This document shows positions 46,328 through 50,722 of a stretch of 64,000 nucleotides of DNA, piece by piece. The position numbers were made by a program, and so were the translations under genes. Within the stretch, counting starts at the first letter, position 1. Every line of letters starts with the position of its first letter. Source of the DNA: Fimbriiglobus ruber. Lineage in GTDB: Bacteria; Planctomycetota; Planctomycetia; Gemmatales; Gemmataceae. Location of the stretch: assembly GCF_002197845.1 (NCBI RefSeq), contig NZ_NIDE01000007.1:124001-188000 (forward strand). The letters are read 5' to 3'. A model generated the notes under the pieces. That model searched no databases. It was not told the DNA's origin and worked only from the letters and a program-made list of their open reading frames with translations.

Positions 46328-47002
46328 GTGTCCACACTGCCGTTCGCAATGATGGGGTTGGACTCGACCCGGGTCGCGCAGCTCGCGGTGAATGTACTGG
46401 CGGTCGCGGGCGGATTCCTGGTCGGGTACATTGCGACGCTGATCGGCGCGAAGGTGCTGGACAAGTACCTCACCGCGGGAAAAACCCCGCTGCCGCTCCA
46501 CAAGGTCGCGCGGTTGCTCGGTGGCGCGATCGTCGCACTCCTCGTCGCCCTGGTCGTGTTCGGCGAAGGCGGGGGCGGACTCGGGAGCGGAACCGGCGAG
46601 GGGAAAGAGAAAGTCGAGGGAACGGGGGTTGGGGAAGGCACCGGCCAAACGGTGTCGGTTCCGGCACCGAAAGTCGACACGCCCACGCCGACACCACCCC
46701 CGAAAACCACGCAGCTCAAAGAAGCGGACAAAGTTTACGACGTGATTCGCGTAACGGTACTGGGTGGCGAAGACGTGAAGGAATTGAAATTTTATCGGGT
46801 CGACGACGATGCGGTTCCGAAGACGCTGAAAGAACTCCAGGACGCGGTGAAAACCCGGCAGCAGGCTGCTACAAAGCCAGTGGCGATCGCGTACCAGTTC
46901 GCCCCGAACGGGTTGGCCGGGAAAGACACCCCCGGAACCCTGCGCTTGCTCGCCTTCGCCCAACACGAGGGCCTGGCGGTCGTCCCGCCGGGCGAGAAAT
47001 AG
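46328..47002 (+). CDS. Membrane protein with acidic/Pro-rich linker
   Basis: 224 residues from GTG 46328, preceded by CGGAGAA (spacing 6). Two hydrophobic segments (about 16-42 LAVNVLAVAGGFLVGYIATL; 60-80 LLGGAIVALLVALVVFG) are followed by a Gly/Glu linker with TPTPTPPPKTT and a C-terminal alpha/beta domain (KVYDVIRVTVLGGEDVKELK FYRVDDDAVPKTLKELQDAV). Not recognised. It is 44 bases upstream of the GTPase gene on the same strand, so a functional pair is likely. Confidence 0.7.
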   Translation: MSTLPFAMMGLDSTRVAQLAVNVLAVAGGFLVGYIATLIGAKVLDKYLTAGKTPLPLHKVARLLGGAIVALLVALVVFGEGGGGLGSGTGEGKEKVEGTGVGEGTGQTVSVPAPKVDTPTPTPPPKTTQLKEADKVYDVIRVTVLGGEDVKELKFYRVDDDAVPKTLKELQDAVKTRQQAATKPVAIAYQFAPNGLAGKDTPGTLRLLAFAQHEGLAVVPPGEK

Positions 47003-47046
47003 CCGGCGACCCGCCACCCGAGAAGGACGCCGCGCCGCCCGCGCTC

Positions 47047-49560
47047 ATGTCAACCCCCTCACCTACGTTCGTCGCCGGGTCCGCCGCTCCTCCGCCCCGG
47101 GTGGTGTTTTTCGGCCCGTCGTTCTCCGGCAAGTCCACCCTGATCCGCATCTTCGTCCACGCCGCCGCGGCTTCCCCCGAACAGGACGCGATCGTCCTCA
47201 CCCCGGCCGCCGCATCGGCCGCCATCGTGAGCGGCGAATCGGTCCCGTACCTGATCCGCGTCGACGACCCCGGGGTCGGCCCGCCCGGGAAGTTCGTGAT
47301 TTGCGACAGCGACGGGCGGACGGCCGAGGAGTTGCTCGCCCGGCCGGACGTGTTCGACCGTAGAGCCAGCGGAGGCGCGCTGGCGACGGCCGTCCGCGCG
47401 GCCGACGCCCTGGTCCTGGTCGTGGCCGCCGACGCGTCGCCTCAAGCCGTGGGTCAGACGTTCGAGAGCTTCCGCCAGTTCCTCGGGGGGTTGGAGCGGG
47501 GCCGCACGTTCGGCCGCGTCGTCGGCGGGTTGCCCGTTTTCCTCACCCTGACCAAGTGCGACGAGCTGCACTCGTCGGGAGACGCACCGACCGACTGGCT
47601 GGCCCGCGTCGACGTGCGTAAGGACGAGATCCGGAAGCGGTTCGTCGTCGATTTCGGCGACGAACTCGTGACCGAGGCGGAGCCGGACGAAGAACCCACG
47701 GATGACCCGTTCCTGCCGTTCGGCAGCATCGACCTTCACGTCGCAGCGACCGCGACCCGCGTGCCCGACGGCCCCGCGTTCGCCGCACATTCGGACCCGG
47801 GCGGGACGTTCGGGGTGGCCGACCTGGTCCGGGACTCGCTCACGGCCGGGCGAGCGTACCGAGACCGGGCTACCGGCGCCGCCCGGCGGCTCAAGTGGAC
47901 GGTGCGGGGCGCCGGTGCCGTCCTCGCCACCATGCTGATCGGGCTGACGGGACTGGTCGCGGCCAGCGGGTTCGCGGGCGACCCCCTCGCGGACCGCGTC
48001 CGCGCGTATGAGGCGAGCGAGCCGCCACCCGCGGTGCGCCTGTCGGACGCCCAGTACGCGCGGTTCCGTCACGAACTGCAGGCGGTCCGCGTCAACCCGC
48101 GGTTCGATGCCTTGCCTACCGATTTAAAAGACTTCGTCACGACACGGCTGAGCGAGTTCGATGCGTACAAGGAATACCGCGGCCGGTTCCGTCCCCCGCG
48201 GCTCGGCCCCGCCGAGGTGCGGTCGACCGAGCAGGCCGACCGACTCGCGGCCGACCTGACGACCGCCCTCGCCCCGCCGCCCGAGTACGCAGAGGCGTGG
48301 GCCGAGACCGACGCGGTACGGCTGTGGTGGAAGTGGCAGGCCGATCTGGTGCTGGTGCGCGAAGCCGCGGGCCGATTACAAGACTGGTATAGCGGACTGA
48401 TCCGGCGGGCCAATCAACTCCTCCTCACCGACAAGCCGCCCGACCCGGCGTGGCGGGCGGAAGTCGGCGGACTGTTCAAGTCGGCCGTCGCGCCGCCGTT
48501 CGCGCCGACCGCCGAGATCGAGCAATCGCTGGCTGTCCCGATAGTGCGGGGGCGAAAACTGACCTACGCCCCGGCGTTCGCGGCCGACCGAGTCGTCCGG
48601 TCCGCCACCGACTGGGCCGACGCTCGCGACCGCCTCACCCACCTGCGCGACCTCGCCGACGCGCTCGGGCTGATCGCCGGCCCGGGCGCCCCGTTCGCCG
48701 TTCTGGAGTTGCCCGAGCCCACACCCGACGGAAATGGCTCGCGCGAACTCGCGGCCGCCCGCCTCGCCGCCCTCCGCGTCGCGTTCCCGCCCCCAGCCTA
48801 CCCAGGCGACGACTACCCCGAATGGGTCACGGACGCCTTCCCGGACCCGGTCCGCAAGCTTCTGGACACGCGGCTGGCGGGGACATTCGACGTCGGCGCC
48901 CGCCACGCCCGGGTCGTGGTCGCGCAGTTGTTGAACGGCGCAGAGGATCGGACGCGGGCGGCCGACCAGATCGCGCGGGACGACGGGCTCAAGGCGTGGA
49001 GCCGGCTGCTCGGCCTACTCCGCAAGTGGACCGCCCCGCCAGCCACCCCTGTCGTTGACCCGGTCCGGGAGTTGGTCGAATTTCTCAAACGCGACCGGTT
49101 CGACCTCGATCTCCGCTCCGTCGTCGTCACCCTGCCGGACGACTTGCTGGAACAGCGGCCGGAACCGCGGGGGTCGTTCGTGGTCACACACACACCGGCG
49201 GGTGGGGCACCCCGCGAATACAAATTCCGCGTTGAAGGCGACGGCCGGCGCGAACACGCGGCGACGGCCTTCACGTTCGTCCCGGACGGTCCCTCGGCCG
49301 CAATCCCGTACCGCTCCGGCGACGGACTGACGGCCGCGCTCGGCCTCCGGGCGGGTGGCCGGGAGTATCGATTGGTCTGGTCTGGCGGCCGGTCCGCGGT
49401 ATACCAGTTCGATCGGTTATGGGCGCCGCCCAAGGTGGAAAAGGTCGGTCCGCTACCGGTGCCCGAGCCGGCCCCCGGAGTGCGACTGGTCGTGCCCCCG
49501 CCGGGCACGCTGCCTGCGATCCCGGCGCTGCTGCCGGACTCGGCGGCGAGCGGGCGTTGA
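47047..49560 (+). CDS. P-loop GTPase-like membrane protein resembling IcmF/TssM
   Basis: 837 residues. Walker A GPSFSGKST is at residues 23-31, FVICDSDGRT could be the switch/Walker B region (about 90), and VFLTLTKCDELHSSGD gives the T/N-K-x-D base-recognition motif at about 169. A single membrane helix lies at about 288-310 (GAGAVLATMLIGLTGLVAAS), and the remaining 500 residues have no recognised domain (several Trp-rich helices, then beta strands). The order GTPase-helix-extracytoplasmic region resembles IcmF/TssM of type VI secretion but the other Tss genes are absent. It pairs with the membrane protein just upstream. Confidence 0.65.
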   Translation: MSTPSPTFVAGSAAPPPRVVFFGPSFSGKSTLIRIFVHAAAASPEQDAIVLTPAAASAAIVSGESVPYLIRVDDPGVGPPGKFVICDSDGRTAEELLARPDVFDRRASGGALATAVRAADALVLVVAADASPQAVGQTFESFRQFLGGLERGRTFGRVVGGLPVFLTLTKCDELHSSGDAPTDWLARVDVRKDEIRKRFVVDFGDELVTEAEPDEEPTDDPFLPFGSIDLHVAATATRVPDGPAFAAHSDPGGTFGVADLVRDSLTAGRAYRDRATGAARRLKWTVRGAGAVLATMLIGLTGLVAASGFAGDPLADRVRAYEASEPPPAVRLSDAQYARFRHELQAVRVNPRFDALPTDLKDFVTTRLSEFDAYKEYRGRFRPPRLGPAEVRSTEQADRLAADLTTALAPPPEYAEAWAETDAVRLWWKWQADLVLVREAAGRLQDWYSGLIRRANQLLLTDKPPDPAWRAEVGGLFKSAVAPPFAPTAEIEQSLAVPIVRGRKLTYAPAFAADRVVRSATDWADARDRLTHLRDLADALGLIAGPGAPFAVLELPEPTPDGNGSRELAAARLAALRVAFPPPAYPGDDYPEWVTDAFPDPVRKLLDTRLAGTFDVGARHARVVVAQLLNGAEDRTRAADQIARDDGLKAWSRLLGLLRKWTAPPATPVVDPVRELVEFLKRDRFDLDLRSVVVTLPDDLLEQRPEPRGSFVVTHTPAGGAPREYKFRVEGDGRREHAATAFTFVPDGPSAAIPYRSGDGLTAALGLRAGGREYRLVWSGGRSAVYQFDRLWAPPKVEKVGPLPVPEPAPGVRLVVPPPGTLPAIPALLPDSAASGR

Positions 49561-49813: not shown

Positions 49814-50722
49814 ATGCACATACAAGATATTTTCCGCGAACACCCGACCACGTTCAGCTTCGAGTTCTTCCCGCCGAAGACGGACGAGGCGTCGGAGGAG
49901 TTGTTCCACAATGTCGCCCGGCTCCAGCAGCTCAAGCCGTCGTTCGTTTCGGTGACTTACGGTGCCGGCGGGTCGACGCGGGACCGGACCCACGATCTCA
50001 TCATCCGCATCCAGCGGGAAACGGACTTAACCGCCGTCTCTCACCTCACCTGCGTCTGCCACACGCTCGACGAGATGACCGCGATCCTCGACCGGTACGC
50101 CGGGTCCGGGATCGAAAATGTCCTCGCGCTCGGCGGCGACTTACCCCGCGACCGCGCGAACTACGACCGCGCGCGGGACGCCTTCCAGTATGCGGACGGC
50201 CTGGTCGGGTTCGTCCGGTCGCGGACGAACGCCCCGGACCGCCGCGGGTTCGGCATCGGCGTCGCGGGCTTCCCCGAGGGGCACCCGGGCACCCCGAACC
50301 GGCTCAAGGAAATGGACTACCTGAAACGGAAAGTCGACGCCGGGGCCGACTACATTTGCACCCAACTATTCTTCGACAACCGGGACTTCTACGACTTCCG
50401 CGAGCGGTGCGAGCTGGCCGGGATCAAGGTTCCGATCGTGGCCGGGATCATGCCGGTCGCGTCGAAGGCGGGGATGGTCCGGATGGCTGACCTGGCTGCC
50501 GGCGCGCGGTTCCCGGCCAAACTCCTCCGCGCCGTCGAGCGGTGCGGAAAGGACGACGCGGCAGTCGCCCGAGTCGGCGTCCACTGGGCGACCGAGCAGT
50601 GCCTCGACCTGCTCGAAAACCGCGTCCGTGGCATCCACTTTTACACCCTGAACAAGTCCGACGCGACCCGCCAGATCTACGACAACCTCGGCGTCGTGGA
50701 CTCGGTCGCCCTCCGGGCGTAA
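49814..50722 (+). CDS. metF: 5,10-Methylenetetrahydrofolate reductase
   Basis: 302 residues, full length for bacterial MetF. It catalyses NAD(P)H-dependent reduction of methylene-THF to methyl-THF, the methyl source for methionine, using FAD in a TIM barrel. Seen: TFSFEFFPPKTDEASEELFH (catalytic Glu region), SVTYGAGGSTRDRTHDL, HLTCVCHTLDEM, NVLALGGDLPRD (FAD-binding GGD), GAGFPEGHP-type VAGFPEGHPGTPNR and DYICTQLFFDNRDFYDFRERC, GIMPV. AGGTGAGG precedes the ATG. No regulatory RNA was found upstream. Confidence 0.97.
   Translation: MHIQDIFREHPTTFSFEFFPPKTDEASEELFHNVARLQQLKPSFVSVTYGAGGSTRDRTHDLIIRIQRETDLTAVSHLTCVCHTLDEMTAILDRYAGSGIENVLALGGDLPRDRANYDRARDAFQYADGLVGFVRSRTNAPDRRGFGIGVAGFPEGHPGTPNRLKEMDYLKRKVDAGADYICTQLFFDNRDFYDFRERCELAGIKVPIVAGIMPVASKAGMVRMADLAAGARFPAKLLRAVERCGKDDAAVARVGVHWATEQCLDLLENRVRGIHFYTLNKSDATRQIYDNLGVVDSVALRA

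What the first reader, a model, noticed from the sequence alone, without database searches (positions are those of the whole stretch)
46328..49560. Two-gene membrane system with an IcmF/TssM-like GTPase outside a type VI locus
A membrane protein with a soluble C-terminal domain precedes a protein with GPSFSGKST and TKCD motifs, one membrane helix and a 500-residue unexplained part. No other secretion genes are adjacent. Such an orphan pair could be a planctomycete-specific transport or envelope machine.
Basis: partly seen in the sequence, partly recalled or inferred. Interest (0 to 1): 0.6.

Follow-up and report, generated by a model that had tools for sequence, protein, structure and literature searches.

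The report
GTPase module of a proton-driven motor
Two neighbouring membrane-protein genes in a planctomycete turn out to be the separated half of a conserved four-gene set that looks like a proton-powered envelope motor of the Tol/Exb kind, fitted with a built-in GTP switch not seen in the known motors of that kind.

Summary
A (46328-47002) and B (47047-49560) are real genes. B has a GTPase domain, one membrane helix and a ~530-residue extracytoplasmic part. B is a true GTPase by sequence and predicted fold, but nearest SRbeta/MglA/Arf/Rag, not TssM; no IcmF domain reaches its cut-off. The pair is not an orphan. In most Gemmatales it closes a conserved operon, lepA-lepB-lepB-ybgC-Q-R-A-B(-metF). 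Q is a MotA/TolQ/ExbB channel protein. R is TolR/ExbD-like with an invariant aspartate in its membrane helix. In this genome the operon is split: Q-R lies on another contig, A-B-metF in the window. Eight of nine genomes without adjacent A-B or B carry B elsewhere, so the four genes are kept together by selection. Best explanation: a Gemmatales-specific, proton-motive-force-driven envelope motor derived from a tol-type operon, with A and B where TolA and TolB-Pal would be, and B's GTPase acting as a cytoplasmic switch, as MglA does for myxobacterial AglRQS. System membership is well supported; envelope function and switch are inferred. The GTPase is degenerate in some lineages, which argues for a regulatory role.

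The parts
46328..47002 (+). gene A: 224-aa inner-membrane protein, two helices, periplasmic C-terminal domain
   Evidence: homologue lies between R and B in most relatives
46364..46564 (+). A residues 13-79: two-helix membrane hairpin; positive charges in the short loop suggest the loop is cytoplasmic
   Evidence: model and hydropathy/charge count
46571..46720 (+). A residues 82-131: Gly-rich then Pro-rich linker, predicted disordered
   Evidence: low pLDDT
46739..46984 (+). A residues 138-219: soluble alpha/beta domain, weakly similar to the C-terminal domain of R
   Evidence: profile comparison score 26.5 against at most 18.9 in 40 shuffles
47047..49560 (+). gene B: 837-aa GTPase with one membrane helix and a large extracytoplasmic part
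47098..47796 (+). B residues 18-250: cytoplasmic GTPase domain
   Evidence: model and Foldseek to SRbeta, MglA, Gtr/Rag, Arf; Pfam MMR_HSR1/DO-GTPase2 in relatives
47113..47139 (+). G1 / Walker A motif GPSFSGKST
   Evidence: sequence; intact in 38 of 43 profile-matched B proteins found next to Q-R-A
47305..47316 (+). G3 motif DSDG (DCDG in most relatives)
47551..47562 (+). G4 motif TKCD
47902..47958 (+). B transmembrane helix (residues 286-304), basic residues on the N-terminal side (N-in)
   Evidence: helix 257-304 in model
47983..49089 (+). B residues 313-681: extracytoplasmic helical region, no named family
   Evidence: no Pfam/NCBIfam match
49096..49380 (+). B residues 684-778: C-terminal beta-sandwich, absent from a lineage with ~525-aa B proteins
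49814..50722 (+). metF (methylenetetrahydrofolate reductase): conserved downstream neighbour of A-B, not part of the machine; marks the moved segment
   Evidence: PF02219; B-metF order also in L004, L032, L033, L043

Best explanation
A and B are two subunits of a four-subunit inner-membrane machine whose other two subunits, Q and R, are encoded elsewhere in this genome. SHOWN: Q belongs to the MotA/TolQ/ExbB channel family. R is a single-helix protein with an invariant aspartate in a PLID membrane motif, as in TolR/ExbD. The ancestral order in Gemmatales is ybgC-Q-R-A-B, behind lepA-lepB-lepB. The four genes persist together when the operon breaks. B has a GTPase domain, one membrane helix and a ~530-residue part on the other side. 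INFERRED: Q and R form a proton-driven 5:2-type motor. A (two helices, linker, periplasmic domain) and B (through its membrane helix) sit on it and carry its movement into the periplasm, in the place that TolA and then TolB-Pal hold in the tol operon. GTP binding by B's cytoplasmic domain switches or recruits the motor, as the separate GTPase MglA does for the myxobacterial AglRQS motor. The likely job is Tol-like work on the envelope (outer membrane or cell wall, perhaps at the bud) in bacteria that lack FtsZ.
For: Operon: ybgC-Q-R-A-B in dozens of loci; A follows R in 56 of 61 loci with room, B follows A in 43 of 53. Genus mate has lepB-lepB-ybgC-Q-R-A-B-metF intact; own genome has lepA..lepB-lepB-ybgC-Q-R on contig C4 and A-B-metF in the window. 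Different genomes break the set at different points (Q|R-A-B, Q-R|A-B, Q-R-A|B), yet B is still present elsewhere in 8 of 9. Same-genome test: 33 of 36 Gemmatales genomes have this Q type; 29 of those have a clear B; none of the 3 without a clear Q has one. Q = PF01618 at 1.3e-11, best NCBIfam resemblance TolQ. R: ExbD is the commonest Pfam match, best 9.5e-5, Asp18 in 55 of 55. Upstream gene is a YbgC/FadM thioesterase over cut-off. GTPase fold, with MglA and the membrane-anchored SRbeta among the best hits. Distances of Q, R, A and B co-vary, r 0.84-0.90, more than with the thioesterase, 0.75-0.81. [quoted passage not shown]
Against: Neither A nor B shows the conserved His (SHLS motif) that TolA/TonB use to bind the motor (motif from PMC12204202). 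R's periplasmic domain is not recognisable as ExbD/TolR by profile; only the membrane helix aligns. The GTPase motifs are lost in some lineages, so GTP cannot be essential everywhere. The own-genome Q copy carries a one-base frameshift near its start. No experiment or complex model supports physical association. Some genomes with Q have no B detectable by profile (G016, G024).
Confidence: 0.6

Rival explanations
1. B is a divergent TssM/IcmF and the pair is a relic or variant of the type VI or type IVB membrane complex, acting as a secretion-system scaffold.
For: Same coarse order (GTPase, membrane helix, helical periplasmic part, C-terminal beta domain); whole-length profile comparison with 14 real TssM gives E 5.9e-10, far above column-shuffled (score at most 27) and reversed (24) controls.
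Against: That score comes mainly from the GTPase domain; single TssM proteins match B's GTPase no better than other GTPases. The membrane-plus-helical part scores 41.1 against up to 39.1 in 20 block shuffles. PF06761 and PF06744 are not met and PF14331 is not met at its cut-off. No TssM among the 50 best structure hits. A is not DotU-like; a TssK, DotU and IcmF_N set is encoded elsewhere in this genome. The pair travels with a TolQ/TolR-type motor.
Confidence: 0.12
2. Q-R-A-B is an energised transport system linked to protein export or lipid traffic (neighbours: two signal peptidases, a thioesterase), with B's large periplasmic part as cargo receptor and the GTPase as gate, rather than a force-transmitting Tol-like machine.
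For: lepB-lepB-ybgC lie directly upstream in many genomes; SRbeta, a targeting GTPase anchored in a membrane, is the top fold match.
Against: lepA-lepB and ybgC-tolQ-tolR are each old bacterial gene orders (lepA-lepB from own knowledge; ybgC-tol from PMC12204202), so their juxtaposition need not mean shared function. No transporter or cargo-binding domain recognised.
Confidence: 0.2
3. A-B in the window no longer works with Q-R in this genome: the operon broke, Q is frameshifted, and A-B is decaying or has a new job.
For: A-B-metF sits on another contig than Q-R; Q shows a one-base shortfall in a C run.
Against: A and B keep intact frames and motifs; the same split is stable in Limnoglobus roseus and relatives. 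A one-base difference in a homopolymer is also a common sequencing error.
Confidence: 0.08

Closest known systems
Tol-Pal system (ybgC-tolQ-tolR-tolA-tolB-pal)
   Same: ybgC-Q-R gene order; Q is a TolQ-family protein; R has the membrane aspartate; downstream genes encode membrane-anchored proteins reaching into the periplasm.
   Different: No TolA, TolB or Pal domain in the set; no SHLS-type conserved His in the helices of A or B; Q is short (~180 aa) with a short loop; B carries a cytoplasmic GTPase.
AglRQS-MglA gliding motor of Myxococcus
   Same: A TolQ/TolR-type motor working with a Ras-like GTPase; MglA is one of the best fold matches of B's GTPase.
   Different: Here the GTPase is part of a membrane-spanning subunit encoded with the motor; no Glt/Agl accessory genes were seen next to it.
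vWA force transducers beside TolQ/TolR-like motors in the PVC group (PMC12204202)
   Same: Alternative partner proteins for 5:2-type motors, also in planctomycetes.
   Different: Those have vWA domains and, in one class, an SHLS helix; A and B have neither; no GTPase is mentioned in that paper.
TssM/IcmF of type VI and IVB secretion
   Same: GTPase plus membrane helix plus large periplasmic helical/beta part.
   Different: No IcmF Pfam domain met; one membrane helix after the GTPase and none before it; associated with a TolQR-type motor, not with TssL/TssJ.
DO-GTPase2 (PF19993) and MMR_HSR1 (PF01926) GTPases
   Same: Best Pfam matches of the B family's GTPase domain.
   Different: Matches are modest and concern the GTPase domain; the rest of B has no named family.

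Membership tests
TssM/IcmF | IcmF-related N-terminal domain PF14331 | tested here: not met
   Not found in B; 2 of 26 relatives at best 2.7e-4
TssM/IcmF | Middle (PF06761) and C-terminal (PF06744) domains | tested here: not met
   No match in B or among the top families of 26 relatives; profile comparison of the parts gives nothing clearly above controls
TssM/IcmF | Encoded with TssL/DotU and other T6SS genes | tested here: not met
   None recognised among neighbours in the window or in the recurring neighbour families of relatives; TssK, DotU and IcmF_N lie together elsewhere in the genome
TRAFAC-type GTPase | G1, G3, G4 motifs and GTPase fold | tested here: met
   Motifs; MMR_HSR1 1.8e-6 in a relative; Foldseek to SRbeta, MglA, Rag, Arf with probability 1.00
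TRAFAC-type GTPase | GTP binding and hydrolysis | not testable with these tools
   needs protein
Dynamin-like GTPase | Dynamin_N domain and assembly stalk | tested here: not met
   Dynamin_N in 3 of 26 at best 0.0062; no dynamin among the top 50 fold hits; weak profile hits to the dynamin G domain only
TolQ/ExbB/MotA-TolR/ExbD motor operon | MotA_ExbB domain in Q | tested here: met
   PF01618, 44.7 bits against cut-off 22.9
TolQ/ExbB/MotA-TolR/ExbD motor operon | Single-helix partner with proton-binding Asp | tested here: met
   One helix in 55 of 55 R proteins, Asp18 invariant; ExbD Pfam below cut-off
TolQ/ExbB/MotA-TolR/ExbD motor operon | ExbD/TolR periplasmic domain in R | tested here: inconclusive
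   Only the helix aligns with ExbD profiles
Tol-Pal | TolA or TonB SHLS/His motor-binding helix in A or B | tested here: not met
   No His above 80% in the membrane columns
Tol-Pal | tolB and pal in the operon or genome | tested here: inconclusive
   Not seen in the operon; rest of the genome not searched
Zorya or other defence system | PADLOC models | tested here: not met
   Only weak hits (best 0.0053) to unrelated models
5:2 rotary motor | Pentamer-dimer assembly and proton-driven rotation | not testable with these tools
   inferred from family

The most novel reading that the evidence does not exclude
Gemmatales have replaced the TolA-TolB-Pal half of the tol operon with a two-protein transducer, one of whose subunits carries its own GTPase, giving a proton-driven envelope motor under direct GTP control, used by FtsZ-less budding bacteria to move the outer membrane or wall.
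Probability: 0.35. Interest if true: 0.78.

Novelty: new variant of a known kind. Interest (0 to 1): 0.6.

Why it matters
Proton-driven TolQR/ExbBD-type motors power outer-membrane work, gliding and nutrient import, and a 2025 survey states that many of the envelope systems they energise remain to be found (PMC12204202). This set would add a partner that links the motor to GTP on the cytoplasmic side within one polypeptide. It is close to universal in Gemmatales, bacteria that lack FtsZ (PMC5147048) and whose division and envelope mechanics are poorly understood. It gives four named genes to delete and tag.

Tried and rejected
TssM/IcmF membership: rejected as a family assignment after Pfam, profile comparison with 14 real TssM and shuffled, reversed and other-GTPase controls. 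Dynamin: only weak G-domain hits. Defence system: nothing convincing in PADLOC. Plasmid carriage: none. A as an ExbD/TolR protein: no profile match; only a modest link to R's own C-terminal domain. Foldseek of A against PDB gave nothing significant. First genome-contig scan with B found nothing and the B alignment was too diverse to use as a scan query; the conserved Q was used instead. The 15 weak hits of the B profile outside the order are mostly P-loop-length matches and were discarded.

Full report
OBSERVATION. Gene A (46328-47002, GTG start, 224 aa) and gene B (47047-49560, 837 aa) are present as described. Codon use marks both as coding. The window lies in a 12.36 Mb, 20-contig genome, contig C7:124001-188000. 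Neither protein matches Pfam or NCBIfam at a useful level, and B has no sequence match in the PDB. tblastn of B finds it in 31 of 59 relatives, nearly all in the same family.

B IS A REAL GTPASE. The alignment of the B family keeps G1, G3 and G4. Scanned one by one, 21 of 26 members match MMR_HSR1 (best 1.8e-6), 17 match DO-GTPase2 (best 9.4e-7), and only 2 match IcmF-related_N (best 2.7e-4). An AlphaFold2 model of B from 38 sequences has mean pLDDT 88.8. It shows a GTPase domain (about 18-250), a long helix containing the membrane segment (257-304), a helical extracytoplasmic region (313-681) and a beta-sandwich (684-778). Foldseek against the PDB gives SRbeta, MglA, Gtr/Rag and Arf at the top.

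IT IS NOT AN ORPHAN PAIR. In relatives the genes in front of A-B recur in fixed order: lepA, two signal peptidases, a YbgC/FadM thioesterase, Q, R, A, B, sometimes followed by metF. Q matches MotA/TolQ/ExbB (PF01618, 1.3e-11). R matches ExbD weakly but as the commonest family (12 of 16 members, best 9.5e-5); it has one membrane helix, with Asp18 invariant in 55 of 55. The ybgC-tolQ-tolR order is that of the proteobacterial tol operon (PMC12204202), so A and B stand where tolA and tolB-pal stand there. The SHLS motif that TolA and TonB use to bind the motor (PMC12204202) is absent: no conserved His in the helices of A or B.

IN THIS GENOME THE OPERON IS SPLIT. A search of the window's own genome with Q of a genus mate finds one place, contig C4 near 1,195,100-1,195,640. 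The region (L061) carries lepA, lepB, lepB, ybgC, Q and R and then a glutamyl-tRNA-synthetase-like gene, with no A or B. The genus mate (L032/L062, a Fimbriiglobus MAG) has lepB-lepB-ybgC-Q-R-A-B-metF in one piece. So A-B-metF in the window is the detached end of that operon.

CONSERVATION. A scan of 84,980 species genomes with the Q profile returned 74 loci; 71 of them (L062-L132) carry a Q of this type, in records labelled or consistent with Gemmatales or other planctomycetes, a few labels being evidently wrong. R was found in 70 of the 71. Where R has at least 900 bases behind it, A follows in 56 of 61 (one further locus had too little room to tell); where A has room behind it, B follows in 43 of 53. 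In four of the other ten (L105, L107, L110, L121) a large single-helix protein without a Walker A motif stands in the B position; I judge these as B-like by eye only. Nine genomes in which A-B or B was not next to Q-R were searched: eight have B elsewhere. Break points differ: Q | R-A-B (L079 and its other contig, seen as L037), Q-R | A-B (window genome, Limnoglobus roseus) and Q-R-A | B (Zavarzinella formosa). In 36 Gemmatales genomes searched for both, 33 have this Q type (149-293 bits, against at most 37 bits in other orders of the class). Of these 33, 29 have a clear B, two have a weak match and two none; none of the three without a clear Q has a clear B. Outside the order, 293 planctomycete genomes give only weak, mostly P-loop-length hits. 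Pairwise distances of Q, R, A and B correlate at 0.84-0.90, and with the thioesterase at 0.75-0.81.

IS B A TSSM? Whole-length profile comparison of B with 14 real TssM gives E 5.9e-10, well above shuffled and reversed controls. Dissected, the signal is the GTPase domain (score 72) and, weakly, the membrane helix with what follows (41). Single TssM proteins score 37-59 against B's GTPase profile, while HflX-, MnmE- or Era-, Obg- and dynamin-type proteins of the same genome reach 50-59 (names of these by sequence inspection). The membrane-plus-helical part scores 41.1 against up to 39.1 in 20 block shuffles. So the resemblance is one of layout, and membership is not supported. The genome has a separate TssK, DotU, IcmF_N cluster on contig C14.

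GENE A. The model (mean pLDDT 81) shows a two-helix hairpin, a disordered Gly/Pro linker and a confident alpha/beta domain. Basic residues lie in the hairpin loop, so the C-terminal domain is likely periplasmic. That domain aligns over 81 columns with the C-terminal domain of R, score 26.5 against at most 18.9 in 40 shuffles and 12.4 reversed. Common origin of the two domains is possible, not shown. No PDB fold match was significant.

MECHANISM. Shown: family of Q, membrane aspartate of R, gene order, co-inheritance, predicted GTPase fold of B. Inferred: Q and R form a proton-driven motor of the 5:2 kind; A and B attach to it and carry its movement outward; GTP on B switches or recruits it. 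[quoted passage not shown] The loss of Walker A in 5 of the 43 profile-matched B proteins, with the membrane and outer parts retained, suggests that GTP has a regulatory and dispensable role, while the outer part is the core function. The envelope task is not known; Tol-like work on the outer membrane or wall is my preferred guess, given the tol-like gene order and the absence of FtsZ in planctomycetes (PMC5147048).

NOVELTY. I found no paper describing a GTPase-bearing partner of a TolQR-type motor in planctomycetes (open-licence papers only). The motor belongs to a known kind; the partner pair is a new variant.

LIMITS. No complex was modelled. TolB, Pal and TolA were not searched genome-wide. 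The own-genome Q has a one-base frameshift in a C run, which may be a sequencing error. Start codons in relatives were chosen by script. MAG incompleteness affects absence claims. The name Fimbriiglobus for the window's genome is inferred from its genus mate.

Noticed in passing
L061:8556-9286 (genome contig C4, near 1,195,056-1,195,786): The window genome's own TolQ-like gene is frameshifted by one base in a C run near its start; either sequencing error or decay.
   Followed up: partly
L236 (genome contig C14:698000-708500): A small TssK (in two reading frames), DotU/TssL and IcmF_N-only set with no further T6SS gene in the ~10.5 kb stretch read; the IcmF-like protein is ~555 aa. Possible reduced T6SS-like membrane complex.
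   Followed up: partly
L105:6413-7894, L107:3991-5799, L110:7867-9906, L121:11775-13688; L114, L116, L123-L125: Proteins in the B position that lack the Walker A motif but keep the membrane helix: GTPase domain degenerate in several lineages.
   Followed up: partly
window:41020-45322: TadE, TadE and a 1005-aa TadG-like protein in a row, with no other Tad pilus gene recognised close by.
   Followed up: no
window:22395-26368: Three similar ~308-aa pseudopilin-like proteins (N-terminal [31 protein letters not shown]) in tandem.
   Followed up: no
window:52041-53958: Three tandem ~200-aa paralogues ([10 protein letters not shown]..) that look like Uma2/DUF820-type nuclease-fold proteins.
   Followed up: no
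L071, L077, L119, L121: Public MAG records labelled Bacteroidales, Singulisphaera or Kuenenia carry this Gemmatales operon: mislabelled or contaminated bins.
   Followed up: no
L048:7195-9569 (also L117): B gene split into two overlapping reading frames (539 and 270 aa) in a Gemmatales MAG; real fission or frameshift.
   Followed up: no
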